This document shows positions 1-47,184 of a stretch of 47,184 nt of DNA, piece after piece. Where the stretch lies: assembly GCA_947246685.1 (NCBI GenBank), contig CAMXSN010000011.1, positions 1-47,184 of the forward strand. The letters are read 5' to 3'. The notes beneath the pieces were generated by a model. The model worked only from the letters and a program-made list of their open reading frames with translations, made no database searches and was not told where the DNA came from. The translations under genes and the position numbers were made by a program. Position 1 is the stretch's first letter; each line of letters begins with the position of its first letter. The stretch comes from an uncultured Clostridia bacterium. Lineage in GTDB: Bacteria; Bacillota; Clostridia; Christensenellales; UBA3700.

Positions 1-54
1 TGCCATTAAAAATGCACCTCCTTAAGTTTTGTCTAACTTTTGGGGTGCATTTCA
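1..54 (-). mobile_element. Outward-facing end of an IS3-family (IS150-like) element, partial
   Basis: These 54 bases are the exact reverse complement of the last 54 bases of the window. Read on the minus strand they begin TGAAATGCACCCCAAAAG, run through an AAGGAGG ribosome binding site and end in ATGGCA at the window edge. That is the terminal repeat plus the start of a first transposase frame. A TG terminus followed by CCCC and AAAAGTTAGACA is typical of IS150-group IS3 elements. The transposase itself lies outside the window, so the family call rests on the end alone. Confidence 0.6.
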
Positions 55-96
55 ATTTGCGAGCGGCTTTTAATATGCCTATTTTACAAAATTTAT

Positions 97-7194: not shown

Positions 7195-7770
7195 TTATAT
7201 CCTCCTGTTGTCGAGCATAGCTTGTATAACTCTCCCCGCGTCGGCTATGCTCTTTGGTCTGTCGGGCGGGGTCAATGCGATACTTCCGCGCGAAGAGATG
7301 GATCTCGGGGGTTGATTTTGCTCCAACTCTTCGAGATATTTCTCTACTATAGCGCCTCGTATCTTTTCGTTGCCGTAGACGTACTTCTCTATAAAAGCGT
7401 CGTCTTCGACTAATTTTTCCGGCGGAACGTATATTTTTGCAAAGACTTTTGCCAAAGCTTTTTCCAAACAATCTCCGTCTTTGCTCAGCGCTTCGTCTGA
7501 AGCGATCTGCTCGCCTATCATAGCGGCAAAATCCTTAGCTATCGGATAATCGCAAAAAAATCTGTCGACTTTATCCTGCCAATCTCTTCTCTCGTATACC
7601 GCTTCGCCTATTTGGCTCTCGGGAGTGTCCGCGCGTTTCTCCCCCGTATTTATATCGGTATTCCCATCGAAAGAATCTTGACGGACAGCCGCGCTTTCCG
7701 CTAACGGCTCCTGCGTATTCCCGTTGACGTCCGCTACCGTAATTTCGTCATTCGATTGCCCGTATTCCAC
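7195..7770 (-). CDS. Phage scaffolding protein (GTG start)
   Basis: A 191-residue acidic, hydrophilic protein with a disordered N-terminus (repeats of Asn, Asp, Gly, Thr, Glu), a helical middle, and a basic C-terminal stretch ending AMLDNRRI. Size, composition and position between portal and capsid genes fit a scaffolding protein, which guides capsid assembly and then leaves. The start codon is GTG at 7770, eight bases after AGGAGG. It overlaps the end of the portal gene by 23 bp, implying coupled translation. Confidence 0.72.
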   Translation of the reverse strand: MEYGQSNDEITVADVNGNTQEPLAESAAVRQDSFDGNTDINTGEKRADTPESQIGEAVYERRDWQDKVDRFFCDYPIAKDFAAMIGEQIASDEALSKDGDCLEKALAKVFAKIYVPPEKLVEDDAFIEKYVYGNEKIRGAIVEKYLEELEQNQPPRSISSRGSIALTPPDRPKSIADAGRVIQAMLDNRRI

Positions 7771-9637
7771 CGTCGTTGCCTCCTTTGTCCGCGCCGAGCG
7801 TTAATCCTGCGGCGCTCATTATTCTATGATTTCTTATGTGTTCGTCGATGAGGTTTATCATATCGGCGTCTTTTTCTTCAAGCAGTCTTTTGAGATGCTC
7901 TTCGATATGCAACGAGTGATCGTCGTAGTCGGCGACTTGCACTTCGATTTTGCCGAATTCGAGATTTTCTTTCATAGCTTTTTTTCTGTGACCTTCGTCG
8001 ACGTCTTTGCCCGACTCCCAGTTTCCCAGCCCCAAAATTTCAAGAATCTTGAGCTTGTTGCGACTGGATATCTCGCCGTTGTCTCCGTTGAAAATGCCGA
8101 GTTTGGCAAGTTCCAACACCATATTCCTGCGGTTTTCCAACGTATCCGTCAATTCGTTTTCGTTATCGAACACAAGGTCGTCGCTCTGCAAATCGCTGGC
8201 GTTGAAATATGCCAGTTCCACGTCGCCGTTGTCCCCCGAGAACCTCTTCATTCTTCTGGTCTTGCAAAACTGCTTGTAAAGTCTGAGCATCTGCTCGCAT
8301 ATTCTCTTGATTCCCATTCTGAGCGAATTGGTTGCGATAGACAGACGCGTGTCGTCCTGCTCGACCAACAATCCTATCGCCTTGCCGGAAAGCTGATTAA
8401 ACACGTTGGAATATTTACTCAACTCGCTCACTCCGGATATCGTCGTAAACTCGGTAAGTATCCTCTCTTCTTCATATTGAAAATCTATGGGCACTTTGCC
8501 CGTTTCGAGCAACCTAGGCGGATTGGCGCCCTGCCTGTAGATCAATACTTTGCCGGGCGACAGCCCTTCTTCTTCGAGATTATCGGTATCTATCGAGCCG
8601 TCTTCGACGGTCATAACTCCCATAGCGAGTCTGTTGATAAACTCGTGCTTGCGATTCTTGACCGCATTGTAAGCCCTCTGCAAGGGAATGAGCCTTTCGA
8701 TTATGCTCGTGCCGTAGAAACAGCCGAGTTTGTCAAGACAAATAATTCGCGTGAAAGGAAAACCGCGCTGCTCGCCGTATTCGTTGATATACGGCAGGTC
8801 TCCGTAGTGCAGCAATTTGTTGCCGGCTACCGCCGCGTATTCTCCGTTGGGTTTGTCAACGGTGGGACGCGTGTAGCGCTCTATCACCACGCACATATCG
8901 TGCGCCGCGCTTTCGAGCATATTGGGAACGCTAGCGCTGTAGCCCAATCCTCCGCCCACCTGAGCGTTGTCGAGAGAAAACACGTTGACGTCCTCCCCTT
9001 CTACTTCCACTCCCCAGATATCCTTAATCTCATCAACGTGATAAGCCTTGGCATGGATGATACTTCTGCAATCGCCGACGTTGGCAGTCGTAATGCTGTC
9101 TGGGAAAATCTCATACGGAGGCACGACGCTTACGCTGACGTCGCCCTCTCTGACGTATTTTCCGTCTTTACCCGCGCCAATGATTTTGCCCTTGTCCGGA
9201 GACCATACAGTCTTGAAAAAACAACTGCCCGTAACTTCGCTCCAGGTACTCGCCTCGTTGAGCAGCAGACTGACGTCGTTTTCTTCGCACAGCGCTTTGA
9301 CGATTTGAGTGGAAAGTTTTGCCGTCTGCACGTCGCTGTCGTCCGTGCTGAAAGGGCGTACGCTCACTCCGCATTTAAGCCGATTGAGTTTTGAAAGTCT
9401 GGTCTCTATTATCGACGAAATGTGATTGTAGACCTCTCTTTCCTGCCAGAAATACTGCTTGCCGTATTGCTCTATATCTCCGACCGGAGATATCTCGGAA
9501 TATTGATTGCCGTTGAAAAAGTTCATATTTAACCGCCACTGCAATTCAAGCGGTTTACGTTCTTCCCTGCGTCTTTCAAAATCCTTTCTTACGTCCGCCA
9601 CTATATCCTGCGCAAATAAAGTTTGATTTCTTCTCAT
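7748..9637 (-). CDS. Phage portal protein (P22-like)
   Basis: The portal forms the twelve-subunit ring through which DNA enters and leaves the head. The 629-residue protein begins MRRNQTLFAQDIV. It includes WRLNMNFFNGNQYSEI, YNHISSIIETRLSKL, RYNAVKNRKHEFINRLAMGVMTVEDGSID, KVLIYRQG and TISGVSELSKYSN.FNQLSGKAIGLL, the pattern of P22-type portals. An in-frame ATG exists 24 bp upstream, but the ATG at 9637 has AAAGGAGGG at correct spacing and overlaps the previous stop as ATGA, so it is chosen. It is shorter than P22 gp1 (725 aa) and lacks the long C-terminal barrel. Confidence 0.85.
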   Translation of the reverse strand: MRRNQTLFAQDIVADVRKDFERRREERKPLELQWRLNMNFFNGNQYSEISPVGDIEQYGKQYFWQEREVYNHISSIIETRLSKLNRLKCGVSVRPFSTDDSDVQTAKLSTQIVKALCEENDVSLLLNEASTWSEVTGSCFFKTVWSPDKGKIIGAGKDGKYVREGDVSVSVVPPYEIFPDSITTANVGDCRSIIHAKAYHVDEIKDIWGVEVEGEDVNVFSLDNAQVGGGLGYSASVPNMLESAAHDMCVVIERYTRPTVDKPNGEYAAVAGNKLLHYGDLPYINEYGEQRGFPFTRIICLDKLGCFYGTSIIERLIPLQRAYNAVKNRKHEFINRLAMGVMTVEDGSIDTDNLEEEGLSPGKVLIYRQGANPPRLLETGKVPIDFQYEEERILTEFTTISGVSELSKYSNVFNQLSGKAIGLLVEQDDTRLSIATNSLRMGIKRICEQMLRLYKQFCKTRRMKRFSGDNGDVELAYFNASDLQSDDLVFDNENELTDTLENRRNMVLELAKLGIFNGDNGEISSRNKLKILEILGLGNWESGKDVDEGHRKKAMKENLEFGKIEVQVADYDDHSLHIEEHLKRLLEEKDADMINLIDEHIRNHRIMSAAGLTLGADKGGNDGGIRAIE

Positions 9638-9831
9638 CGATTTCCCTCCTTTCTCCCGCAAGTTTTGTCAAACAGCCGCTGCAGTCCGCCGTAAACTTCC
9701 TGCGCGCAGCATTCGCAAAGATGAACGTAATTCTCGACGGGCGCGTCGTCGGGAACAAGCGAATACGCAGCTAAGTTCGCGCACTTGCCCATATCGCATT
9801 TCAGTTTACGGTTCTGAACTATTATTTTCAT
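9634..9831 (-). CDS. Small Cys-rich phage protein, possible zinc knuckle (65 aa)
   Basis: A 65-residue protein with Cys12, Cys17, His37, Cys39, Cys41 and Cys42 (HLCECC). The cysteine and histidine spacing could bind a metal. It is real: AAAGGAGAGG precedes its ATG, and its TGA overlaps the portal's ATG. It also overlaps the 3' end of the 96-residue gene upstream. A similar short Cys protein between terminase and portal is common in clostridial phages in my experience, but no function is established. Confidence 0.65.
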   Translation of the reverse strand: MKIIVQNRKLKCDMGKCANLAAYSLVPDDAPVENYVHLCECCAQEVYGGLQRLFDKTCGRKEGNR

Positions 9832-10096
9832 TTTCCTCTCCTTTTGCTTTGCTCAGCAAACTCGCGAGCAAACTCTCTTTGTATTTTTGCAGTTCTTCGT
9901 CGCTCATCGCCGTCAATTCCGCCGTGCGGGATTTCAACTCGACGTAAGCCTTTGCCGCCGCCAAGTCGGGAGGAAAATGCTTGGTGCTAATCTTTCTCTT
10001 GACCAACTCGTTCTCTCCCGAATATTCCTCGGTAATCTCCCTGATATCGTAGCCGACGGCGCGTCTTAATATTGCTGACTCTATCTCGTCGTTCAT
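9806..10096 (-). CDS. Phage protein resembling the C-terminal part of small terminase subunits (96 aa)
   Basis: The sequence RRAVGYDIREITEEYSGENELVKRKISTKHFPPDLAAAKAYVELK matches the pattern (aromatic-GYxxxExxEEY...LVKRKxxTKxxPPDxxAxxxxLE) seen in the C-terminal half of small terminase subunits of Firmicutes phages. There is no N-terminal helix-turn-helix, so it would be a trimmed form or a related accessory. It lies downstream of the large terminase gene rather than before it. The ribosome binding site GGAGGAG precedes the ATG. Its 3' end overlaps the Cys-rich gene by 26 bp. Confidence 0.6.
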   Translation of the reverse strand: MNDEIESAILRRAVGYDIREITEEYSGENELVKRKISTKHFPPDLAAAKAYVELKSRTAELTAMSDEELQKYKESLLASLLSKAKGEENENNSSEP

Positions 10097-10108
10097 AACT
10101 CCTCCGTC

Positions 10109-11536
10109 CTAAACAATGCGTTTTCTCGACAGAGCATTCGCAAGTTTTTGTTTGTCTTTCTGAATTACGCTCAAAGCGACGTCGGGCGCTTTTGCCGACT
10201 GCGGTCTTGACGCGATATAATACCTCAGCGCGTCGAGAGCATGATCGTCTTTTTTCAGAGGTCTGTCGCCTTTGCTCCACCAATAGCTCTTGAGTTCTCT
10301 GATAAGATTGACGCAACAGGAAAATATCTTGAGTTTACCCTCGGCAAAATAGCTTTTGACCTTGGCTATACCTGAAAACAGATTCTTATCCACCTTTGTA
10401 TTGACGACTATGCCTCTGTCGTAGAACAGTTCCGATACGCTCCGCTGACTTGCCAAAGTACGTTGGTCGGCGGCGCTGTCGATCAACGCCCGCAATCTGC
10501 CTCTGGAATCTCTGTGCCAACCAAGATCGTACGCCAATTTGTGTATCGCGTCGGCATGCCAATCTATGTCTTTGCCTGCCATATACGACTCTGCGACTAC
10601 GAATACGTTGCCGTCGTAGTCCACGGCGAAAAAAAGACACGCCAAAGGATTGTTCAGCCCGGGATCTATCGAAATATTGTCCTGCCACTCAAACGGCACG
10701 TCGAAAGGAGCTATGACGTGAGCGGACGGATCGAATTCTTTATAGACTATCCCCTCCGCTTCGCTGAAGCGGCCGTATCTTCTCGACGAGAGAGTCTCCT
10801 CGTCCATATGTCCCGAAAGATTTGATATTTCCTCGGAATCGAGAAATGGATTATCAGCCCACTCGACGTGCTCGTGCCACACCTCTTCGTCCTGAGCGGA
10901 ATTGAGATATATCTCGTCGTATACCCAAGTCAATCCTTTGAGCGGAGTCATAGTGCCCCATATCTCTCCCAACCTATCTATAACTCTCATCCTGCATTCG
11001 TCGTAAATATCTTTAGGCGGTTCTTCGTCAAACCAAACGAAGTCAAGCGACGTTCCCTGAAATTTTTCACGTCCCTGATCGCAGCTTTTGAAAGATATTT
11101 TTGAAGTTCCGCCAAATACGTTTTTGATAAGAATATAATCGATTATCCCATATTGAGCCGAAGCCTTCTTGCCCGATTGCATGACGATATCCTCTATCCA
11201 ATCGGGATTGACGTAACTCAAAAATTTGCTTTGCGCGACGTCGCGTTGCACCTCGTAAGACAGCGACACCACCCATCCGGCAACGTCCTTACGATTCTGC
11301 CTGTAAGGATGTATTCCTCGCGCCCACCACACCGCCTCGACTGCGCCGCACTCCGTTTTGCCGCTTCTGTTGCCGCCGAAAACCCATCTGTTGCGTTTGG
11401 CGCATCTGTGGAAGATCATTTGTTTTTCATGAACTTTTTCTCCCGTGTTATATAGCGCGAGTTTGTCGTTGAACTCTCGTCTGCGCTCTTCTTTCTCGAT
11501 CGAATATAAGGTATAAAGTATTTGCTTTTCCGTCAT
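10109..11536 (-). CDS. terL: Phage terminase large subunit
   Basis: TerL is the ATP-driven motor and nuclease that packages phage DNA through the portal. The 475-residue protein has Walker A FGGNRSGKT (53-61) and Walker B VWFDEE (167-172, acidic residues 170-172). The RNase H-like nuclease domain is marked by ISIDPGLNNP, ALIDSAADQ and a final DHALDALRYYI. All catalytic landmarks are intact. It is the first gene of the minus-strand phage operon, downstream of a TTGACG-17-TATAGA promoter (11553-11581). The ribosome binding site is a weak GGTGA. Confidence 0.93.
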   Translation of the reverse strand: MTEKQILYTLYSIEKEERRREFNDKLALYNTGEKVHEKQMIFHRCAKRNRWVFGGNRSGKTECGAVEAVWWARGIHPYRQNRKDVAGWVVSLSYEVQRDVAQSKFLSYVNPDWIEDIVMQSGKKASAQYGIIDYILIKNVFGGTSKISFKSCDQGREKFQGTSLDFVWFDEEPPKDIYDECRMRVIDRLGEIWGTMTPLKGLTWVYDEIYLNSAQDEEVWHEHVEWADNPFLDSEEISNLSGHMDEETLSSRRYGRFSEAEGIVYKEFDPSAHVIAPFDVPFEWQDNISIDPGLNNPLACLFFAVDYDGNVFVVAESYMAGKDIDWHADAIHKLAYDLGWHRDSRGRLRALIDSAADQRTLASQRSVSELFYDRGIVVNTKVDKNLFSGIAKVKSYFAEGKLKIFSCCVNLIRELKSYWWSKGDRPLKKDDHALDALRYYIASRPQSAKAPDVALSVIQKDKQKLANALSRKRIV

Positions 11537-21802: not shown

Positions 21803-22640
21803 TCTATCATTCTGAGCGCAATGCAGTAGAAGAATCTAATCAATTAGTTTTGTCATTTCGATTGCAACTGTTGAGATATTTCGACTGCGCTGTCGCTCCG
21901 CTCAATATGACAGAACTTTTTAGTTAAGTATCTTAGTAAGAATAACTAATCTAGTTCAAATTAAAAATATTAATGTCACCCTGAGCGAAACGAAGTGAAG
22001 TCGAACGGGTCTCAACATATTAATAAATTGATTAGATTTCTCCACTGCGGTCGAAATGACATATATCAGATATAATACGTCATTCTGAGTGAAGTCGAAG
22101 AATGACAAAATAAAAGTGAATAAACAAACTTGCAGTAGTATAACAATCTTAGTTGAATTGCCAAATGTCCTTTATGTCATATTGAGCGAAGTGTAACGTA
22201 GTCGAAATATCTCAACAGTATGAAAGTAAAAAAGATGAGATTCTTCGACTGCGCTCAGAATGACAGAACATATAAACATAGTGGACAATAATATGTCACC
22301 CTGAGCGAAACGCAGTGAAGTCGAACGGGTCTCAACATATTAATAAATTGATGAGATTTCTCCACTGCGGTCGAAATGACATATCACATTATAATCCGTC
22401 ATTCTGAGCGTAGTCGAAGAATCTCATCCGTTTTATTTCTTCATCAATGTGAAATAGCGATTACTGCGTTATGCTATTAACGTCAATCGCGTCAGCATCT
22501 CAACCGCTTAACAAAGACCGCCAAAATGCGCGCAAAGCGGCATTTTCGTTTGGGCGGAAGGGAGTAATCTGACTGATAATACGGCAAGTTTATTTGATAT
22601 AAATATACTTGCCGGTCAAAAGGCGAGATTACGCACTCGT
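21803..22640. repeat. Mosaic array of dispersed hairpin repeats (array 1)
   Basis: This gene-free stretch is built from units of the form GTC-arm-TGAGCG...GTCGA-arm-TCTC in both orientations. Examples are ACCC/GGGT at 21978-22010, ATATT/AATAT at 22179-22210 and ATTCT/AGAAT at 22401-22422. It also holds a TAGCGATT...CGTTATGCTATTAACG hairpin near 22452-22490 and a CCGCC...GGCGG element at about 22528-22567. About 150 bp (from about 22292) recur almost unchanged at about 33074. No convincing gene lies inside. Confidence 0.85.
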
Positions 22641-22758
22641 CTACGCTTGGTGTGTTCAAAGCGTTCCTATTGATAAAATAACGAAATATACTCATAGGGT
22701 TTAAGATGTTATAATTAACAGGTATAATACATTATGTGGATAAAAGATATGTGTCCAA

Positions 22759-25629: not shown

Positions 25630-25721
25630 CCTTAATGCAACGACCTAACGAATTTGTGGAGCTTTCCGCGCGATGATTGTTCGCGGAAGTTAAGCCATTG
25701 ATATTAAGTAAATTTGTGTGT

Positions 25722-26285
25722 TCCGCCCAAACGAAAATGCCGCTTTGCGCGCATTTGGGAGGACTTATGTTAATAGGATTAGATATTTCGACTGCGCTGT
25801 CGCTCCGCTCAATATGACTAGTGCGTAATCTCGCCTTTTGACAGGCAAGTATATTTATATCAAATAGACTTGCCGTATTATCAGTCGGATTACTCCCTTC
25901 CGCCCAAACGAAAATGCCGCTAAACGCGCATTTTGGCGGTCTTATATTAATAGGATTAGATATTTCGACTGCGCTGTCGCTCCGCTCAATATGACAGGAC
26001 TTTTTAGTTAAGTGTCTTAGATAGAATAACTAATCTTGTTCAAATAACAAATAATTACAATGTCATTCTGAGCGTAGTCGAAGAATCTCGTCAGTATATT
26101 AATCGGTTGAGACCCGTTCGACTTCACTACGTTTCGCTCAGGGTGACAGACTATTGTCCGTTACGATTTTTAGTCCTGTCATATTGAGCGGAGTGTAACG
26201 CAGTCGTAAGGAGCGAAGCGACGGTATAGCGATTGCTACGTTATGCTATTAACGTCAATCGCGTCAGCATCTCATCCGCTTATCC
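25722..26285. repeat. Mosaic array of dispersed hairpin repeats (array 2)
   Basis: Two copies of the CCGCCCAAACGAAAATGCCGC element (about 25728 and 25900) lie here, with a nested GGCAAGT...ACTTGCC and GTAATC...GATTAC structure between them. There are also ATATT/AATAT, ATTCT/AGAAT and ACCC/GGGT hairpin units and a GCGATTG/CAATCGC hairpin (26229-26262). The 150 bp between this array and the giant gene (26286-26434) contain further partial inverted repeats but no gene. Confidence 0.8.
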
Positions 26286-26434: not shown

Positions 26435-29400
26435 CTATCTCTTCGCTAACGTCCTCTGCTCTTTAAGAAAATCCTGATACCTCTCTATCTGATCCTCTCT
26501 CAAATCTATCATCTTCTTTGCCGATCTATACGCCTGCGCGTCTCCGACTATTACTTCTGTCTCCTTTGTCTTGATCTTTGTTCCGTCGCTGCTTGCGTCT
26601 TTCCTCAAATCCTTGAAGTATTCGTCTTCCATCTTAAACAACGCTACCGTCATATCTTTCTTTATCGTCAATTTGACCAACGGATTTACCGACGACTGTC
26701 CCATCAAGATGAAATACGTAGACTTCTTCTCCTTGCACTTATCTTTGGTCAACGCATAGGCTTTGAGCCCGTCAAAATACTTTCTCTGCTCTTTGCTGAG
26801 TTGCGCGTACGCCTCGTCAAGCGTCAATCTCGGAGCGCGCTCCTTGGTCAATGCCGACGATCTCTCCGCGGCAGGTACTCTGACGATCTTCTCGACCACT
26901 TTTTCTACGGGCACTTCTATGATCTTTTCCACAACCTTCTCTACAGGCTTTTCGACGATTTTCTCGACAACCTTCTCAACGGGTTTTTCCACCACTTTCT
27001 CGACAGGCACTTCGACAATCTTCTCGACAACCTTCTCTACGGGTTTCTCCACTACTTTCTCAACGGGAACTTCGACTACTTTCTCGACGACTTTTTCGGA
27101 ATTGCTCTGCGACATAAGTTTCTCGATGAGTTTCTCTTGATTACGCATCATCTGAGCGATAGCCGCGTCGTTCTTATCCGTTCTGTCGAGCAGTCTATTG
27201 ACGGTTTCGTCGTTTTTCTCCGATCTATCAAGCAATCTTTGCACCGCTTCGTCGTTGGAGCTTGCCGTCTGCGGCAAAAGCTGTTGCACGCCCGGCAACA
27301 ATGCCGCCACAGTCTCGGTGATCAAGCCTTTGATACTCTCCGCATCGACCGTAATGGAAGTCTGAGGCGTGATATAGGACGTATCGTGCGCAACTCCGCC
27401 GCCGTTGCTGCCCATATGCATAAACATCATACGCATTTCTTCGTCGCGGGCTTTTTTCTCGTTTTTCTCAAATTCTTCCTTTGCTTCGTCGAGATAATCC
27501 TGCGCCTTGTTGCAACGGCTCTTCTGTATGATCATAAATATCAGACCGAGCAGCGCAACCGCGAGCAACGAACATGCGATAATGGTCCAATTTTTCGAGC
27601 CGAGTCCGAATATAGCCGTACCTGTCACCGCGTAGACCGATTTATATTTCTTATCGGCAGTCTTTTTGGTCTTTTTGCGTTTGCTCTCGTAAGCAAAACC
27701 TTTTGCAAAGAATATCAACGCCAACAAAATGCTGACCGCGCTGACGATTATCTGCCACCATTCTTTTAAGAAATCGGCAAACTTGCTCATGTCTATGCTG
27801 CTGCCGGGATCTTTATCACCGGGTTTCTCGGGATTGTCGGGATTACCCGGATCTTCGGGATCGCTCGGCAATTCGGGATCTACCGTCGGATATACCGGGT
27901 GATTGGGATTGTTGGGATCGTTGACCGTCTCTCCCGCCGTCACGCTGAACATCTGCGGCGCTGTCTCCACGCTTCCGTCTGCAAATACGAAATTGCTCTG
28001 CTGATCGGCTTTTATCCTCGCCACTATGCTGTACTGCACTCCTGCTTCCAGCTTACCGCCGTTGCCCAAATCTATCACGTTGCCGTCAGCGTCCGTTATC
28101 TCATATTCCACGCCTTTGATCTGTCCGTACGTCAAGTTGAGCACAGGCGGCTTATACTTCGTATTCCACGTAGTATCAATCTTGCCTTTGACTATCTCAA
28201 AATCAAATTCAAAGTCTCCGTCTATTTGGTACTTGTCTATATAAGAGTTTTTAAGGCTGATCTCCACTCTGTATTTGCCCACGTTGGTCGGCGCGGTTGC
28301 TAGCTTTGCATAGCCGTCGTAATACGTCACATCAAACGCATTCGTTGGCAGCTTGCCGTCCGCTACCTTTATCTTCGCGTGTCTGGGATTACTGTTGTAC
28401 TCCATCTCGCTCTTTTCCAGGCTCACCTGCACCTTCGTCAAGTCTTTGCCTATGCGGAATATCTTGGACTGCGCTGACGGGTCGTCCAGCTCATAGTTGT
28501 TGGTGTCTTTCAATATAGGTTTGGCGATATAATACTTTGATTCCGTGCCCGACCATACGAGATCGCTCTCTTTCAAAGGTTTAGTCGGGTCGAGTATTTT
28601 GCCCGTGGAATCCGTCTCGTAATACTCGTATTCTACTATTCCGCCGTCGGCGTGCGCGTCTCTCAACACCAACACGTCAAAAGCCTTGTTGTTGGTATCA
28701 ACGACGTTTTTATTCTTCCATCCCGCTGTCTTGATGACCGCCTTGATTATCGTGCAGGTCTTGCTCCACTCAAACGGCGAGCTAGAATCCTCGATATACG
28801 TAGTCGGGTCGGTATCGTCGGGCAGGATATAATTATCCGCGCTGTCGGGATATGCAGGATCAAACACAAACGTAACGCTTGCAGGTATGTTGTCGCCCAC
28901 GTTTTGTCCCGTGTTGTCGCTATAGACGGGTTTGAGCTGTTTGGGCACGTTCTCCAACACGGCTTCGGAGCCGTTGACTTTATCGTATTCCAACTGTCCG
29001 TTGTCCTTCCACTTTACTGCGCTGAGATCAAATTTTGCCTTCTCTATCTCCCACTCTATAGTATAAATGCAGGTTTCGGTTGTTCCGTCCTTTTTCAATC
29101 TGACCTTCGTCGTATATTTATCGGCGTTGTGTCCTATCTTGGTATTGTTCGAATTATCTGCGGTTACCTCAAATCCCGTACCGGCAGTACCGAAGGTCTT
29201 GTCTATGCTGTAACCGTCCGGAGTCGTCATATCGAAATTGTAAGCATAATTTTCGTTGAATATTAAATGCTGTTTGCTATACTGCATAGCGGTAGTGTCG
29301 CCCAATTTAGCGGTCAACATATCCAATCTCACAGTCTGTTTGTTTGATTGAATTCTATACAGCACCCAAGTCGGGTCTGTCACCGCCGTAGCGGATATCA

Positions 29401-31957
29401 CCTCGATATATATCGGCGACTTCGGCGTCGACGTCGATCCCGATGACGTCAATACCGCATTGTAATCGCTGTTGTCGCTCTCCACTTTGAGTTCCCACTT
29501 GCCCGTCTGCGTGATAGCGTCGGTGTGCAACTCCAAATTGTTGAGCATCATCATCGATCCGCCTATATCCGCCGCCGTGAGTGGATATCCCGTCGTAACT
29601 TTGGTCCCTCCTGTGTCGGTAAAAGCAATTGGAATCTTGTAACTGCCTTTGACGGCAAAGAATTTCAGCTTCAACGAATCTCCGTTGATATTTAGTATCG
29701 GCTGTTGACTGATCATGCCGTTGACTTTGACTTTTTGATACTGTTTAATTTTAATAGTATCGTTCATGCCCGCATCCGGATCTATGATCAACTCTATGGT
29801 CGCCGGCTCTAATTCCAACTCGATTTCTTTGTCGTCCATATCGTTTCGCACGCCGCTTGCCCAATACATCGATCCGTCTTTTTTCTTCAACGCGACTTTG
29901 ATCTTGTATTTGCCTGCTTTCTTGACGTTGACCATATTGACGTTGTCAAACGTAGCCCCCGTGGGACACGTGACTGTCATCTTGTCCAAATCCAAATCTT
30001 TGAACTCAAATCCCACGTCGTTGCCGCCTGCATAACCTTGTTTTGCATTGACAAACGTAGGCAAAGTCAACGACTCGCCTTCGACGGAAAAATCTTTTGT
30101 CTTAGTTGTGATTTTTGGATCGGGTGTATAATTTGGATTGAGAGAAACCACCGTCGCAACGTAATCGCCCGATGCCGTAGGCATTATCAAAGCCTGTTTT
30201 TCGCATGTCGGGTCGTTGGGATGGTCGGGATGAGCCGGATCGCACTTGGGATATTCGGCTGTACCCGGTTTGTTTTTGTATGAGAAGCCTAGCACGGTCG
30301 TCAATCCCGTGTCGTTGGCGCATAAATCCGAGGGATCGTGCGCAACAGCCGGCGGAGCATTCCCTCCTCCGGTGAGCGTATATCCAATCGGTTGTGGTTT
30401 AATTTCAAATTTTATCTTACGCGTCCAAGACGAATCGGTCCCTTGGTCCGCCCAATTCGTCTTGGCTTGCGCCGCCGTCTTAATTGTAAATTCCACTGTG
30501 TATTTACCGGCGTCTATAGGCAAGGTAGACAAAGCCTTACCGTCTTTGTCTTTATACACAGTGTCCATCGCCGTCGTGTCGTCGAAAATCGACGTGTACC
30601 ACTCCGGCGCTTTTGTTCCGGAACTTACTGACAGCTTGTTGCTGTCGTAAGTTAGGGTGACGTCCTGAGGGACGTCAAGAATCTTTGCCGAGCTCAGCTC
30701 GGCTGATTTTAGATTTAAGTGAAGCGCAGGCCGAACAGCGTACGCGGCGGAGTCCACAATAGCATAGTATTGGGAACCCGCGGCGTCCAAGTAGTAAGCG
30801 TAGGATGCATTAGCGTAACCGCCGGAACGCAGCCAGGAAGTAGCCGAGCTACTTCTCATATTGACCGGATGCGACGTCAAAGAATTGGTATGGCCGGTGG
30901 TGTTCTCCGTCTTCCAGATACCTTCCGAGCCGTGCCAAGTAACGTTGGAAGTCAAACCGTTGGTGCCTGCTCCGGGTCTACCCCAACCTGTCTCTGTCAA
31001 GCTGGGCAGCCACAGATAGTCGTCGCCCCACTCGGTATAGCCGAGAGCATACGAACTGCTCTGCACATTTCCCGTGCCGTTAGTATGCCAGTGACCGCTA
31101 GGTATAGAAGTGCTGAGCGAATCGTTGGGATTGGTCCTCCAACCTTCGCTGAGATATGCGCCCATATTGACGTATGCGTCTTGAGTGCTTTGATATTGAA
31201 CGTTTTTTGGTTGAACTAAGAATTGAGTAAGACTTCCCGTCGCATTGTCGCGCGTGAATACTTCAAACGGATAGTTGGAGTTGGGCGTAACCACTCCCGT
31301 CCTGCTCGTCTTATTAATAGAATATTTTACTTGAGTTGTGCCGTCCGCCTCATAACCGTTGAGAAGCGTAGCTCTGACCAAACTGGTCGAATATACCGAA
31401 GACGGATAGTTTACCGCAAATTCATTTGCCGCCGCCGCGTGCCACGGCGCAAATTTAGAAGTCATTACGTTGGCGTCTTTGAGCCACAGCGTGACGATAG
31501 GATCGCCGTTCTGCGTCTCGGTCGTCAGCGACGTGACTATCCATTCCAATCCGCCGAGAGTTACTATAAGGTTTTGACCTGTTGCGCCGCTAGCGGCGTT
31601 GTAACTTCTTATCGTGTCCGACGCGATACCGTTGTGCATCGTGATGCCGGTAGCTCTGGTGTCGGGAGTGTTTGCCTGAGTGGTGACGTTTGCCAACGTA
31701 CCAGCAGTGCCTTGAGGCGTCAGCTTGTCAAACAACTTTTCCAACACGTTGCCGTTGAACACGTTGCCGTCCGTTCTGGTCTTATAGTCTTCAAGAAGCA
31801 GATCTCCAAGATCCAACGTGTCACTGATAACCGCCGCGTCCGCAATATCCTCGCTTGTCCCCTGCACCGCCGCCGTAAAACCGACTATTAGGCTCAAAGC
31901 AATGACAATGCTTATCACGGCATAGATTATGCCTTTTCTTCTTCTTAACTTTTCCAT
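26435..31957 (-). CDS. Giant membrane-anchored surface protein, DGR target (1840 aa)
   Basis: Residues 9-29 form a signal/anchor helix. An N-terminal domain (about 90-418), with [21 protein letters not shown] and [12 protein letters not shown], looks like a DUF6273- or C-type-lectin-like fold and contains the variable repeat (374-412). Then come MBG-like extracellular repeats (for example about 425-530 and 1185-1270: [14 protein letters not shown]). Hydrophobic helices lie at about 1402-1418 and 1457-1477, with a shorter one at 1440-1453. They are followed by a charged coiled region, a [11 protein letters not shown] repeat (about 1620-1692) and a C-terminal domain with no known match. Basic residues after the helices place the tail in the cytoplasm if three segments span. 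There is no LPXTG motif. The ATG at 31957 has AGAGGTGA, better than the ATG 18 bp upstream. Confidence 0.88.
26885..27095 (-). repeat. Tandem DNA repeat encoding [11 protein letters not shown] units
   Basis: About 210 bp of the giant gene encode alternating [15 protein letters not shown] and PVEK units. The copies are similar but not identical at DNA level. The repeat should form a stiff extended or helical spacer, and its copy number may vary between strains. Confidence 0.85.
30659..30703 (-). promoter_or_regulatory. Pair of perfect hairpins just downstream of the variable repeat
   Basis: In the direction of the gene, the first hairpin is GCCGAGC-TGA-GCTCGGC (30687-30703, seven-bp stem). 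It starts 17 bases after the VR ends. The second is GACGTCC-CTCA-GGACGTC (30659-30676, seven-bp stem, four-base loop). Both lie within coding sequence. A hairpin or cruciform a few bases past the VR is a known DGR target element that promotes retrohoming, so this position is meaningful. Which of the two acts, if either, is unknown. Confidence 0.65.
30721..30838 (-). repeat. Diversity-generating retroelement variable repeat (VR)
   Basis: These 118 bases within the giant gene match the template repeat at 33397-33514 at every position except nine. At all nine the template has A: five became T, three G and one C. The changed codons are seven of the eight AAY (Asn) codons of the template, now Gly, Tyr, Ala, Tyr, Tyr, Tyr, Tyr. 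All 94 non-adenine positions are identical. The final 20 bp (A-free, ending GCCTGCGCTTC) would serve as the initiation-of-mutagenic-homology site. The VR encodes residues 374-412. Confidence 0.93.
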
Positions 31958-32080
31958 ATCATTCACCTCTCGCATCCCTTATCGGATCGAGTCGCCGCCC
32001 CTTATGCGCGGCTCTCCACTTTAATTTATCTCCCGAAAGATAGTTGATGGTATTTCTTTCGGTATATTATTGTTATTATA
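31958..32080 (-). promoter_or_regulatory. Structured leader of the giant surface gene
   Basis: Upstream of the ATG lies a hairpin pairing CCGAAAGA with TCTTTCGG (32033-32062). A GC-rich inverted segment (GAGCCGC...GCGGCGACTC) lies nearer the gene. AT-rich TATAAT-like sequence further upstream (about 32080) could be the promoter, but I found no matching -35 box. No known riboswitch class was recognised. Confidence 0.35.
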
Positions 32081-33290
32081 TTAATCGGTTGAGATGCTGA
32101 CGCGATTGACGTTAATAGCATAACGTAGCAATCGCTATTCCGTCGCTTCGCTCCTTACGACTACGCTCAGAATGACTGATTATATTGTGATATGTCATTT
32201 CGACCGTAGCGGAGAAATCTCATCATTTTATTAATTTGTTGAGACCCGTTCGACTTCACTTCGTTTCGCTCAGGGTGACGAGTGCGTAATCTCGCCTTTT
32301 GATCGGCAAGTGTATTTATATCAAATAAACTTGCCGTATTGTCAGTCGGATTACTCCCTTCCGCCCAAACGAAAATGCCGCTTCGCTTGCATTTTGGCGG
32401 TCTTTGTTAAGCGGTTGAGATTCTTCGATTCCGCATACGCTACACTCAGAATGACAGATTATGTCTGAGATATGTCATTTCGACCGTAGCGGAGAAATCT
32501 CATCATTTTATTAATTTGTTGAGACCCGTTCGACTTCACTTCGTTTCGCTCAGGGTGACATTAATATTTTTTAATTTGCACTGGATTAGTTATTCTTTTC
32601 AAGTGCTTAACTAATAAGTTCTATCATATTGAGCGAAGTGTAACGCAGTCGAAATATCTCGTCCGCTTACGTTTGTCATGCTAAGAATCTATTCCGCTTA
32701 TTCCGTTGTAGACAGAACATAGCGCCAATAATGACACTTATGCATTTTCATTTTACATCAATAAATATGTCTTGGCAAGGCTTAATCGAGAGTTTTTGTA
32801 AAATTTTTCCTATTTTTCGCCTTTTTTCGTCCACTTTTTATTATTCCTTTACAATTTTTTTGGTTACTGTCGGCAATTCTTAATTTTTTCAATCATCAAG
32901 GAAATTACGCCCCCTTGGTTGAAAAATATAATTTTTAGTATTCTTTCTCCTATATACTCAATAGAATAAGCGGTTGAGATATTTCGACTGCGCTATCGCT
33001 CCGCTCAATATGACAGAACTTATAAGTTAAGTATCTTAGTAAGAATAACTAATCTAGTTCAACTAAAAAAATTAATGTCACCCTGAGCGAAACGAAGTGA
33101 AGTCGAACGGGTCTCAACATATTAATAAATTGATGAGATTTCTCCACTGCGGTCGAAATGACATATCACATTATAATCCGTCATTCTGAGCGTAGTCGAA
33201 GAATCTCATCCGTTTTACTTCTTTATCAAAGCGTAATAGCAATTGCTACGTTATGCTATTAACTTCAATCGCGTCAACTTCTTATCAGAT
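32080..33290. repeat. Mosaic array of dispersed hairpin repeats (array 3) with an AT-rich interval
   Basis: The stretch from 32080 to about 32680 and from 32965 to 33290 is made of the same repeat units as arrays 1 and 2. One example is the ATTTC/GAAAT unit at 32197-32218, and there are further copies of the ACCC/GGGT unit. About 32690-32960 is AT-rich and unlike the repeats. It contains a bulged inverted repeat at 32884-32928 (TTTTTCAA...TTGAAAAA) that could terminate transcription in either direction. No gene is apparent. Confidence 0.8.
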
Positions 33291-33327
33291 TTAAGCGGAA
33301 AAAATTTTTCAGTTTTTTGTATAGTTA

Positions 33328-33356
33328 TTGTTTTATCCTCTGCTTTGTGATACAAT
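33328..33356 (+). promoter_or_regulatory. Sigma-A promoter of the DGR template RNA
   Basis: TTGTTT (33328-33333) and TACAAT (33351-33356) are exactly 17 bases apart, with a TG dinucleotide just upstream of the -10 box. Transcription should begin near 33363, about 34 bases before the template repeat. Confidence 0.75.
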
Positions 33357-33396
33357 AATTTGCGTGGCGTATACTTACTGGTTTGCTTACCATTTA

Positions 33397-33514
33397 TCCT
33401 GGCTGCGTTCCGGCAATAACAATAATGCATCCAACGCTAACTACTTGGACGCCGCGGGTTCCCAAAACAATGCTATTGTGGACTCCGCCGCGTACGCTGT
33501 TCGGCCTGCGCTTC
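33397..33514 (+). repeat. Diversity-generating retroelement template repeat (TR)
   Basis: The TR has 24 adenines in 118 bases. All lie between A-free ends of 18 bases (33397-33414) and 20 bases (33495-33514). Its reading frame contains eight AAC/AAT codons, the codons that adenine mutagenesis turns into many other amino acids but not stops. It differs from the VR at 33415, 33416, 33418, 33421, 33422, 33433, 33439, 33466 and 33469, all adenines. Outside these limits the two loci do not align. Confidence 0.93.
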
Positions 33515-33707
33515 TCTCACTTGTCCGATAATGGACAAGATTTTCCGGTATCCGATCTATCCACGGGATAATCGGACTGAAGATTGGAGTTGAAGGGGTA
33601 TGCGTCCTGCTGCAAGCATTACTTGCGGCGAAACAAATCCGACCGTACTGCAACGGCATCTAACGGTTGCTTTTGAAGTATTAGCCGATAAGGCGGTCGG
33701 ATCAAAT

Positions 33708-33737
33708 AAAAAAAACTCGCATCCGCGAGCTTTTTTA
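33708..33737 (+). terminator. Rho-independent terminator of the DGR template RNA
   Basis: A run of A residues, the stem CTCGC-ATCC-GCGAG and a run of six T residues form a classic intrinsic terminator. Its A-rich 5' side makes it usable in both directions, so it may also end the convergent GIY-YIG gene transcript. Confidence 0.88.
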
Positions 33738-33803
33738 TATTGAAACCATTTTGAATCCATTTGCATTTTGGCGGTATTGGTTAATTTGATAAGATTATTT
33801 CAT

Positions 33804-34085
33804 TTATTCTCTCATCAAGTCTTTCCACTCTGCATTATCTCTGTTTATCAACGCATTCTTCTTTTCCCTTCGCCATCCTTTCAGTTGTTTCTCTCTTCTC
33901 AATGCATCGTTAATACATCCGTATTCCTCTACGTATACCAACTTGTTCAATTTGTATTTCTCACTAAACCCCGTCACCACTTTATCATTATGCTCATTTA
34001 TACATCTGTATATGTCATTTGTAACACCGCAATACAATGTTGTGTTGTTTTGGTTTGTGATTAGATATACGTAATACTTTTTCAT
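33804..34085 (-). CDS. GIY-YIG domain endonuclease (UPF0213/YhbQ-like, 93 aa)
   Basis: The small protein begins MKKYYVYLITNQNNTTLYCGVTND. The YVY and YCG elements correspond to the GIY and YIG motifs, followed by the conserved Arg (IYRCINEH). It continues with KLNKLVYVEEYGCINDALRREKQLKGWRREKK, the usual C-terminal part of the single-domain family. Such proteins cut DNA near nicks or ends, but their roles are mostly unknown. No clear ribosome binding site was seen. It lies between the DGR template RNA and a repeat array, facing the RNA. Confidence 0.85.
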   Translation of the reverse strand: MKKYYVYLITNQNNTTLYCGVTNDIYRCINEHNDKVVTGFSEKYKLNKLVYVEEYGCINDALRREKQLKGWRREKKNALINRDNAEWKDLMRE

Positions 34086-34114
34086 GTTGCTTTTTCTTTT
34101 GTGTTTTTCAGTTG

Positions 34115-34672
34115 AAACGTGATTGACGTTAATAGCATAAGCAATCTCTATATGGTTGAGATTCTTCGACTTCGCTCAGAATGACATATTACATATTTGT
34201 TAGTAAGCTAGATTAGTTATTCTTACTAAGTTAATTAACTAAAAAGTTCTGTCATATTGAGCGAAGTGTAACGTAGTCGAAATATCTAATCCGATTACAT
34301 TTGTCATTCTGAGCGTAGTATGACGACTGCTATTGTCCGCTATGTTTATATGTTCTGTCATTTCGACCGTAGTGGAGAAATCTCATCAGTATATTAATCG
34401 GTTGAGATTCTTCGACTTCGCTCAGAATGACAAATTGATTATTTGTTAGTTGAATAAGATTAGTTATTCGTATTTAAGATTCTTAACTAATAAGTTCTGT
34501 CATATTGAGCGAAGTGTAACGCAGTCGAAATATCTCAACAATAGTTTAACTGTTGAGACCCATTCGACTTCACTTCGTTTCGCTCAGGGTGACATATTAA
34601 TTGTTCGTTACGATTTTAGTTCTGTCATATTGAGCGAAGTGCAACGCAGTCGAAATATCTAATCCGCTTAAA
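34115..34672. repeat. Mosaic array of dispersed hairpin repeats (array 4)
   Basis: It contains several copies of the ATTCT/AGAAT, ATATT/AATAT, ATTTC/GAAAT and ACCC/GGGT hairpin units in alternating orientation, and a remnant of the TAATAGCATAA hairpin near 34127. It fills the space between the GIY-YIG gene and the topoisomerase A-subunit gene up to the stop codon. No gene is apparent. Confidence 0.8.
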
Positions 34673-34675
34673 CTT

Positions 34676-37156
34676 TTAATCTATTATATTATGTTTTTTC
34701 GCTCCGCCGATTGTCAGCACGTTTTTATCTTTGGACACGGTCTTCAAAATATTCTTGCCTTTATTTGCTCTATCCTCTATACCTATCTGCTCGGTGTTGA
34801 TACTCTTAACTTCTCCGCCCGGCAATATCAACGCAAAATCATACGGCATCGTCACAATGTCTGCGTATACACATTCTCCCAATTTGGAATCGTTGAGCCT
34901 TACGCCTTTGGACATCCTCATACGCGGTTCTATACAGCCAAGTATCACGCGCTTTGCATATCCGCTGTCGACGACGCTGATCACCTCGCCGCTGCCGTCG
35001 TTGTGCGCGGCAAATATTATCCTGTCTTTGTCTTCTAGCCTCATCAGCTTGACGCCGCTTGCTTTCTTGCCCTGAGTGGGGATGTCGTCGTAAGAATTGA
35101 GCATCATTCCGTCGGCTGTGATAGAGAGTATGTATCCTCTCGCGTCTCTCGTGCCGTCGTCCACCTCCGGCGGAGCGACTGCGCTTACGCTGACTATCAC
35201 GTCGTCTTCGTCCTTAAAAGACATCGCCGTAGTCTGCGACTTTTTGTCAAACGTAAATTCTGACATATCGGCATATTTCGCCATGCCCATCGCAGTGACC
35301 AGCAATATCTTTTTGCCTTTGATATCCTCGGGCTTGAATATTTCTAACAGCACGTCGTCGCTGTCTGCTTTGGCAATCTTGTTGATTCCCATTCCCCTGC
35401 TCTTCCATTTGTCGTCGCCCAGCGCCGCAACGGGGAAAGTCACAGCATTTCCCTTTGACGTTATGCCGAAAAGCATACCTTCGCTGTCCGTCTTGATAAC
35501 CTTCTTGGCGATATCCTGCGCATTGCAGTTGACTATACTCTTGGACGCAAGATTGTAGCCTTTGTCAAGCACAAACTTGATATTGCCGTTGTAGTGCAAC
35601 ACTACGTAGCCGTCCTTTTTGATCTTGGCGTTGAGATCTACTTCCACGTCAGCGATAGCGCTTTCGTGGATGATTTGACTTTGTCTGGGCTGTTTGTATT
35701 TCTTGTTGATTTCGAGCAGCTCTTTTCTGACCACGCCGTATTGCTTTGCCTTAGAATTGGTCACAGCAGTAAGATACGCGATCTTCTCCAACAGTTCTTT
35801 CTGCTCTTCGAGCATTTTGTTAATATCCAGTTTGTTGAGACGTTTGAGCGGAATATCGAGCACGGCTATCGCCTGTCTTTCCGTCAATTCAAATCTCAGC
35901 ATTAGCCTTTCTTTTGCCTCTACGTATGTCTTGCTGTCAAGCACTATGTCCACGACTTCGCGGATATTATTGACGGCTTTGAGCAGACCTTCGAGAATAT
36001 GTTCTCTCTTCTCCGCGACCTCGAGGTCGTATTTGCTCCTCTTGTATATGACTTCTCTTTGAAATTCTACGTAGTGCTTGACTATATCGAGCAATCCCAA
36101 CTGCATGGGTCTGTTTCGTACGATTGCAGTCATGTTGGCGTTGAAATTGATTTGCAAATCGGTCTTTTTGAGCAACAACGCTATCATCGTCTCAGCGTCC
36201 GTCTCTTTTCTCAATTTGATCACGCAGCGCATTCCCGACCTGTCGGATTCGTCGACGATATCCTGTATGCCGCCAAACAGATCTTTGTTGGTCTCCCTCA
36301 GGTCGTTGATCCTTGCCAACAGCGCGGCTTTGTTGACCTGATAAGGTATCTCCGTGACAACAATGTTGGTTCTGCCATTCTCGTTTTCGGTATGATATTT
36401 TGCCCTTATGACAATCTTTCCTCTGCCCGTGTCATACGCCTCGCGTATGCCCTGATTGTCCACGATTATTCCGCCTGTGGGGAAATCGGGAGCAGGAATA
36501 TATTTCATCAATTCGTCGAGAGATATGTCGTTGTCGTCGATATACGCGACGATGCCGTTGATTGCCTCGTGGAGATTGTGCGGAGGAATGTTGGTCGCCA
36601 AACCTACCGCAATTCCGCTCGCGCCGTTGACTAACAGGTTTGGAATCCTGCTGGGCAGAACCTCGGGCTCTTCCAACGAATCGTCAAAGTTCAACGTCAT
36701 CGGAACGGTGTTTTTGTCAAGATCTCTCAATATCTCGAGAGCATACGGCGTCATTCTCGCCTCGGTGTATCTCATCGCCGCCGCGGAATCGCCGTCTACC
36801 GAACCGAAATTGCCGTGTCCGTCGACAAGCAACATTCGCGTGTTGAACGGCTGAGCCAACTTGACCATTGCTCCGTATACGGACGTGTCGCCGTGCGGAT
36901 GATATTTACCAAGACAGTCTCCGACGATACGCGCGGACTTTCTGTGCGGCTTGTCGGGAGTTGTGCCAAGCTCCATCATCGTGTATAATATTCTTCTCTG
37001 AACGGGCTTAAGTCCGTCCTCTACCCTCGGCAACGCTCTGTCAAGTATAACGTATTCGCTATACGGAAGCATAGAGTTGTGCATCACCTGCTCGAAGGTG
37101 CCGTCGATTATTTTGGAGTTGTCCTCCCGTTGTTTGTCGTGATTGTTTTTTGCCAT
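34676..37156 (-). CDS. parC: Type IIA DNA topoisomerase subunit A (ParC/GyrA)
   Basis: This subunit breaks and rejoins DNA. The 826-residue protein has the winged-helix core with [23 protein letters not shown], the catalytic Tyr in [11 protein letters not shown], and [12 protein letters not shown]-terminal beta-propeller follows from about residue 500. The GyrA-box (QRRGGxG) expected in a gyrase is replaced by KKSQTTA, which favours topoisomerase IV. In the quinolone-binding helix the positions matching E. coli GyrA Ser83 and Asp87 are Thr and Gly. It follows the B-subunit gene in the same direction with a 168-bp gap. The parC name over gyrA is an inference. Confidence 0.88.
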
Positions 37157-47109: not shown

Positions 47110-47130
47110 ATAAAAGCGCCCGGCGTATAA

Positions 47131-47184
47131 TGAAATGCACCCCAAAAGTTAGACAAAACTTAAGGAGGTGCATTTTTAATGGCA
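47131..47184 (+). mobile_element. Outward-facing end of an IS3-family (IS150-like) element, partial
   Basis: Identical in inverted orientation to bases 1-54. It contains the terminal repeat, an AAGGAGG site and the first two codons (ATGGCA) of a transposase frame that leaves the window. The left boundary is set where identity with the other copy stops. Confidence 0.6.

What the first reader, a model, noticed from the sequence alone, without database searches (positions are those of the whole stretch)
30721..33514. Diversity-generating retroelement: adenine-only differences between a template repeat and a surface-protein variable repeat
Seen directly: 118 bp at 33397-33514 (+) and 30721-30838 (-) are identical except at nine positions, and all nine are A in the first copy (A to T five times, to G three times, to C once). 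The template has 24 adenines in 118 bases. If substitutions were random in position, nine of nine at adenines would occur with a chance of roughly 6 in 10 million. Known from DGRs: a reverse transcriptase copies TR with adenine-specific errors and the cDNA replaces VR. The template's AAY-rich codons and A-free ends also match DGR rules. The giant surface protein is therefore a hypervariable binding protein.
Basis: partly seen in the sequence, partly recalled or inferred. Interest (0 to 1): 0.97.

Follow-up and report, generated by a model that had tools for sequence, protein, structure and literature searches.

The report
Gene rewriter with a stop template
A gut bacterium carries several template genes from which a reverse transcriptase encoded elsewhere in its genome likely rewrites its giant surface-protein genes; one short template contains a stop codon, and exact copies of such stop templates sit inside surface-protein genes of three related species, so the element would not only vary these genes but likely also switch them off.

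Summary
In detail: 118 bp, nine differences, all at template adenines. This is a real diversity-generating retroelement (DGR): a copy of the target from another assembly is identical over the 300 residues before the variable repeat (VR) and differs at six VR residues, all at adenine-bearing template codons.

The RT is not in this window. RT and bAvd lie on contig C3, flanked by two more templates; a fourth lies alone. Templates share ends and a 3' RNA element but differ in core.

One template is short, adenine-poor and carries an in-frame TAG. Six of 12 RT-positive genomes of the genus have one (6 of 7 with two or more template hits). In three species a target VR is a copy of that species' own stop template, giving a stop and a frameshift while the rest of the gene stays open. 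I infer a built-in, reversible OFF switch.

Two more distant relatives hold 55 and 41 template-type starts; one VR there equals a stored cassette with its 17 adenines unchanged, so some copying may be faithful recombination. Nothing was tested experimentally.

The parts
26435..31975 (-). Target gene: 1846-aa giant protein with N-terminal hydrophobic segment, DUF6273-like domain that holds the VR, MBG-like repeat, and two hydrophobic segments before a C-terminal region rich in repeats
   Evidence: hydrophobic segments read by eye
30721..30838 (-). Variable repeat (VR), differs from the template at nine positions, all adenines in the template
30687..30703 (-). Hairpin GCCGAGC-TGA-GCTCGGC that begins 17 nt after the VR end
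33397..33514 (+). Template repeat (TR), one of four in this genome, 24 adenines
33351..33356 (+). -10-like box TACAAT in front of the template leader (by eye)
33364..33396 (+). Template leader, a degenerate form of the GGGCGTAAG...CTGG leader of the other templates
33503..33663 (+). Conserved 3' RNA element (covariance model R1 hit; overlaps the last bases of the TR)
33716..33736 (+). Terminator-like hairpin with T run (by eye)

Best explanation
This is a multi-template diversity-generating retroelement: one RT-bAvd pair encoded on another contig likely copies several separate template RNAs, which share their ends but differ in their cores, into the variable repeats of giant surface-protein genes, where adenine-rich templates would diversify the binding site and a short, adenine-poor stop template would switch the gene off. 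Shown from sequence: adenine-only differences between this TR and VR; differences between two assemblies of the target confined to adenine-bearing template codons; four template loci with a common 3' element in this genome; short templates with an in-frame TAG in six genomes of the genus; copies of a genome's own stop template inside a target in three of them. Inferred: that RT-bAvd acts on all templates in trans, that the stop copy silences the gene, and that silencing is reversible because both ends and the downstream hairpin survive, so that a long template could overwrite the stop and reopen the gene with a new binding site.
For: Nine of nine TR/VR differences at A (P 1.5e-7). Other-assembly copy P0003 varies only at adenine-bearing TR codons. 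RT-bAvd on C3 flanked by two templates with the same ends. Four non-coding copies share leader and 3' element that both VRs lack. The 3' element occurs in 12 of 12 RT-positive and 0 of 5 RT-negative genus genomes. Short templates: 6 of 6 have an in-frame TAG, 5 of 6 change the frame (against 0 of 18 long ones), cores hold 19 A in 215 positions besides TAG. Three of 10 complete VRs in RT-positive genus genomes are copies of the genome's own stop template (78 of 78, 55 of 56, 58 of 59 bases), and the gene stays open beyond it. G006, G012 and G014 keep a stop template although no stop VR was found there; in G006 and G012 the VR seen is open. Across 10 equal-length VR and best-TR pairs, 120 of 137 differences are at template A. 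In 98 loci of other DGR RTs, 76 with a TR/VR-like pair, no separate short template was seen.
Against: No experiment, no reads. The three stop copies show no change at any of their 10 adenines, and in relative G057 a VR equals a stored cassette with its 17 adenines unchanged, which fits faithful recombination better than mutagenic copying. Stop templates were found in 6 of 12 RT-positive genus genomes and in none of the 12 RT-positive genomes outside the 17 genus genomes, so they are not general. The other assembly of the C2 target (P0002) also has the shortened ORF: no genome shows the same gene open, so reversal is not seen. The window's own target has an open VR. The genomes are related, so the counts are not independent; the P values ignore this.
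Confidence: 0.7

Rival explanations
1. An ordinary DGR with decaying extra templates: the short TRs are dead copies, and their presence in targets is accidental damage without function.
For: Other DGRs with several TRs are known (PMC6642488, passages). Many adenine-poor but open template copies exist in relatives. The C2 target is shortened in two assemblies and never seen open.
Against: Short templates keep leader and 3' element, always have TAG (6 of 6), and keep TAG at one of two codon positions while the surrounding core changes; G005 and G012 have an identical long template but different stop cores that both keep TAG. Downstream frames of 1457 and 1836 codons stay open in G000 and G002.
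Confidence: 0.2
2. Silent-cassette gene conversion: low-adenine cassettes, including the stop cassette, enter the VR by homologous recombination through the shared ends, not by reverse transcription.
For: No adenine is changed in the three stop copies or in the G057 VR that equals a stored cassette, 111 of 112 bases. That VR could also be the source of the stored copy.
Against: Shared ends are short (18 and about 20-30 bases). Every stop template sits in the same RNA-gene frame (leader, 3' element) as the mutagenic templates, and genus genomes without RT have no such element.
Confidence: 0.25
3. Assembly artefact: short reads misjoined template and target at the shared ends.
For: Contigs of relatives do end at these repeats.
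Against: Three assemblies show it, with different flanks on both sides of both copies. In G002 target and both templates lie on one 314-kb contig, 2-2.5 kb apart. A 240-kb contig of another assembly gives the same shortened C2 ORF.
Confidence: 0.05

Closest known systems
Bordetella phage BPP-1 DGR (PMC3240598, PMC12875486: passages)
   Same: RT plus Avd, adenine-specific TR-to-VR changes, RNA element 3' of TR, hairpin just after the VR
   Different: BPP-1 has RT, one TR and one VR in one cassette; here RT is on another contig than this TR and VR, there are four template loci, and one is a stop template. The 3' element was not shown here to bind RT-Avd
DGRs with several TRs or VRs (PMC6642488, PMC3521204, PMC4891356: passages)
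   Same: More than one TR or VR per genome; 271 of 948 DGRs with several VRs, about four fifths of these with one TR (PMC6642488)
   Different: The passages seen mention no short stop-bearing template, no template arrays with a shared 3' element, no silencing
Thiohalocapsa PB-PSB1 DGRs (PMC10907252: passages)
   Same: Targets thought to be diversified in trans by RT and TR of another locus
   Different: There whole loci were duplicated; here single template genes are dispersed and share one RT
Silent-cassette antigenic variation, such as pilin or vls systems (recalled, no call)
   Same: A store of donor cassettes rewrites an expressed surface gene
   Different: Here donors have a DGR-type RNA element and an RT, most changes are at adenines, and one donor encodes a stop

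Membership tests
Diversity-generating retroelement | RT of DGR type | tested here: met
   RVT_1 52.3 bits, cut-off 29.6; IGNQTSQ and YMDD in 11 of 11 aligned RTs (that the first motif marks DGR RTs is recalled); nearest solved chain 8ub7, named only Reverse transcriptase. No RT tree was made
Diversity-generating retroelement | Accessory protein Avd | tested here: met
   bAvd PF22296 41.2 bits, cut-off 40; NF033474 Avd 43.7 bits, below its cut-off of 80
Diversity-generating retroelement | TR/VR pair that differs at template adenines | tested here: met
   9 of 9 in the window; 120 of 137 over 10 pairs
Diversity-generating retroelement | Hairpin downstream of VR | tested here: met
   7-bp stem in the window; perfect stems of 6-7 bp also after most but not all VRs (none flagged by the script in L097, L106, L108)
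Diversity-generating retroelement | VR in a C-type-lectin-like domain | tested here: inconclusive
Diversity-generating retroelement | VR varies in the population while its surroundings do not | tested here: met
   P0003 against window, one pair: 6 of 38 VR residues differ, 0 of 300 before it
Diversity-generating retroelement | RNA-templated cDNA replaces VR | not testable with these tools
   needs a reconstitution
DGR-driven ON/OFF switch (proposed) | Stop template conserved as such | tested here: met
   6 of 6 short templates with TAG, in 6 of 12 RT-positive genus genomes
DGR-driven ON/OFF switch (proposed) | Stop template present in targets | tested here: met
   3 of 10 complete VRs
DGR-driven ON/OFF switch (proposed) | The same gene is found open and closed | tested here: inconclusive
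   C2 target: the one other assembly found is shortened as well; G002 target: no close relative found (best 49%)

The most novel reading that the evidence does not exclude
A retroelement that carries its own OFF switch: a dedicated adenine-poor stop template is written into surface-protein genes to silence them, and rewriting from adenine-rich templates turns them on again with a new binding site each time. One reverse transcriptase thus drives both phase variation and diversification, and sister lineages use the same template RNA genes to keep an archive of dozens of pre-diversified cassettes.
Probability: 0.5. Interest if true: 0.94.

Novelty: new variant of a known kind. Interest (0 to 1): 0.85.

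Why it matters
DGRs are regarded as diversifiers. A set of separate template genes, one of them a conserved stop cassette that is found inside targets, would add a silencing role and make template choice a second layer of control; it could explain how a cell shows few of many variable surface proteins. The template genes are short and modular, so template use in trans by RT-Avd can be tested directly. The cassette stores of relatives raise the question whether a bacterium can keep successful variants.

Tried and rejected
RT on contig C6: NCBIfam names it retron St85 (247.6 bits, cut-off 235), so it is not taken as the DGR enzyme. Rfam: no match at gathering scores in the window. Viral origin: RT relatives in IMG/VR are at most 38% identical and no viral contig holds the pattern of the template start, so the element looks cellular. 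Other giant paralogs (C16, C2:105190, C27, C17, C29, C5, C3:13829, C26) as targets: none holds both template ends with up to 3 mismatches; the C5 paralog has the 3' end with 3 mismatches, and the C16 paralog is 79% identical to one C3 template over 66 bases. Foldseek gave no match with E 0.001 or less for the VR domain.

Papers: searches for several TRs, stop codons, phase variation, archives, DUF6273 and solo TRs brought no listing or passage that describes a stop template or OFF switch in a DGR. The library holds open-licence papers only and no preprint server. Papers were seen as listings, starts of abstracts and passages (one search found none of its terms); none was read in full.

Rows dropped before counts: of 36 places, 24 are templates and 10 VRs; one fossil VR in RT-less G003 and one chance hit in G014:C13 were dropped, and two VRs cut by contig ends (G006:C38, G004:C72) were not in that list. 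Two templates cut by contig ends are not among the 24. Alignment A2 used 33 of the 36 elements listed (L081, L085:4208 and L101:3566 left out; L081 because its contig end looks foreign). In the TR/VR difference count L106 (unequal lengths), L108 (best template 26 differences, 12 at A) and G006 (not compared) are left out. The 3' element was found near RT in 22 of 23 loci L086-L108 (not L093) and in none of L109-L165 at E below 1e-8. In the control three loci were flagged (L145, L151, L160); I judged all three internal or tandem repeats; some of the 76 TR/VR-like pairs are themselves such repeats, and only 6-10 kb on each side of RT were seen. G057 cassettes as A-mutated children of the templates beside RT: only a few fit (11 of 15 and 7 of 10 changes at A), most have drifted. 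The second G057 target VR matches no stored cassette (33 differences to the nearest template by non-A changes). G046: 29 complete modules, 14 without a recognised end.
Full report
1. The observation. The two 118-bp copies were re-read from the window: nine differences, all at adenines of the copy at 33397-33514, and similarity ends abruptly on both sides. The first copy overlaps no ORF of 80 aa or more; the second is residues ~380-418 of an 1846-residue ORF. The chance of nine of nine at 24 of 118 adenines is 1.5e-7.

2. Where the machinery is. The window is a whole contig (C11) of a 1.75-Mb draft genome of 29 contigs. Pfam named no RT in the 29 window ORFs scanned. The genome has two RVT_1 matches, on C6 and C3. 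The C6 one is a St85-type retron RT. The C3 one (378 aa) carries IGNQTSQ and YMDD, its nearest solved chain is 8ub7 (E 1.3e-32), and it overlaps by a few codons a 172-aa bAvd gene. Two 118-bp copies with the ends of the window template flank this pair; neither overlaps an ORF of 90 aa or more.

3. Four templates, two targets. A search of the genome for either end with up to three mismatches gives six loci that hold both ends. Four are non-coding: C11 (this window), two on C3 beside RT, and one alone at C3:204604. Two are inside giant-protein genes: the window target and C2:307482. The alignment of all six shows that the four non-coding copies share a leader (degenerate in the window copy) and about 150 nt of 3' sequence that both target copies lack. 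RNAalifold on 33 such 3' elements predicts 23 pairs, 11 with at least one sequence changed on both sides. A covariance model of the element finds 26 copies in 13 of 46 family genomes: 12 of 12 RT-positive and 0 of 5 RT-negative genus genomes, and one genome of another genus. The model was built from elements of these and related loci, so its hits in them are expected; the informative part is the absence in RT-negative genomes. In relatives templates stand in tandem; -10-like boxes and terminators in front of and behind them were seen by eye.

4. The stop template. Of 24 complete templates in the genus (23, one more, G006:C30:2852), 18 are long (115-154 nt) and in frame from end to end. Six are short (56-90 nt): G000, G002, G005, G006, G012 and G014, one each. 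All six have an in-frame TAG at the 7th or 10th codon of the module; five change the frame; their cores hold 19 adenines in 215 positions besides TAG. Where long templates contain a stop it is TAA (8 of 18), which has two mutable letters. G005 and G012 share an identical long template, while their stop cores differ in length and sequence and keep TAG at the same codon. Of seven genus genomes with two or more template hits, six have exactly one stop template; the seventh, G004, has an adenine-poor open template instead. The P values (1.4e-4 for the frame, 3.3e-4 for TAG against TAA, 1.2e-11 for adenine depletion against 0.274) take no account of common descent.

5. The stop template inside targets. 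A pattern for the shared start gives 36 places in 13 of 17 genus genomes: 24 templates, 10 complete VRs, one fossil in RT-less G003 and one chance hit. Seven VRs are open. Three are copies of the stop template of the same genome: G000 C2 (78 of 78 bases), G002 (55 of 56) and G005 (58 of 59). The single difference in G002 and G005 is the base GCG[C/T]TTC, where open VRs of G011 and G012 also carry the T. Beyond the copy the gene stays open in a shifted frame: 1457 codons in G000, an 1836-aa ORF in G002, to the contig end in G005. In G002 target and both templates are on one contig. An ORF from another assembly (P0002, 98% identical) starts at the same downstream Met as the C2 remainder: that gene is shortened there too. 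This fits an OFF state in a second strain as well as a gene that is simply broken.

6. Hypervariability. P0003, the window target from another assembly, is identical over the 300 residues before the VR and differs at six of 38 VR residues, all at template codons with adenine: AAT, AAT, AAC, CAA, AAC, AAT. Over ten equal-length pairs of VR and best template, from this genome and relatives, 120 of 137 differences are at template adenines; the weakest is G013 with 14 of 23.

7. How it likely works. By analogy with BPP-1, where the RNA 3' of TR recruits RT-Avd and a hairpin after the VR is required (PMC12875486, PMC3240598; passages), RT-bAvd would bind the 3' element of any template RNA, copy it with errors at adenines and place the cDNA between the shared ends of a VR followed by the hairpin. 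Long templates then diversify; the stop template silences. As ends and hairpin survive, a later long copy could reopen the gene with a new site. Binding, copying, silencing and reopening are inferred.

9. A complication. The module occurs in many copies in two relatives outside the 17 genus genomes: 55 exact starts in G057 and 41 in G046, with 0 for the reversed control pattern. In G057, 59 distinct modules have no stop, 58 are in frame (the odd one has a misplaced end), and two lie in open frames over 300 codons. One target VR equals a stored cassette over 111 of 112 bases, its 17 adenines unchanged; every other equal-length module differs at 26 or more sites. Copying without adenine change, in whichever direction, thus happened at least once, and the three stop copies show none at their 10 adenines either. 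Recombination remains a live rival for low-adenine cassettes. No short stop template was seen in the 12 RT-positive genomes outside the genus set, though not all of their modules were read.

10. Known and new. Several TRs, several VRs and action in trans are reported (PMC6642488, PMC3521204, PMC10907252; passages). I found no report of a stop template, OFF switch or cassette store in a DGR in searches (open-licence papers only). A scan of 98 loci of other DGR RTs, 76 with a TR/VR-like pair, showed no separate short template within 6-10 kb of RT. I file it as a new variant of a DGR.

Noticed in passing
L312 6221, L108 8970, loci L305-L339: G057 and G046 hold dozens of template-type modules (55 and 41 exact starts), mostly adenine-poor and open, many in tandem; one G057 target VR equals a stored module at 111 of 112 bases.
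   Followed up: partly
L101 3463 and 3837; L076 (G004:C33) near 29329: Adenine-poor, open, VR-like templates in full template context (A fraction 0.05, 0.12 and 0.14), as if a diversified repeat had been stored.
   Followed up: partly
L103 7787 (VR) and 6300 (TR): This VR keeps the in-frame TAA of its template unmutated, another way in which a target may be closed; 8 of 18 long genus templates carry such a TAA.
   Followed up: no
window 21870-22641, 25721-26282, 32081-34686: Several families of short dispersed direct and inverted repeats fill the spacers around the target and template.
   Followed up: no
window 1-61 and 47124-47184: The contig ends are 61-bp inverted repeats of each other, 95% complementary.
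   Followed up: no
window 7748-11536 (-): Phage-type portal (P22-like) and large terminase genes; the DGR seems unrelated to them.
   Followed up: no
window 33804-34085 (-): A 93-aa GIY-YIG nuclease-like ORF just beyond the template.
   Followed up: no
L011 7263-8180 (+): A St85-type retron RT on contig C6, with a 297-aa ORF of no Pfam match in front.
   Followed up: no
L032 (G014:C153): The DGR RT frame of G014 has one internal TAG, though its three templates look intact.
   Followed up: no
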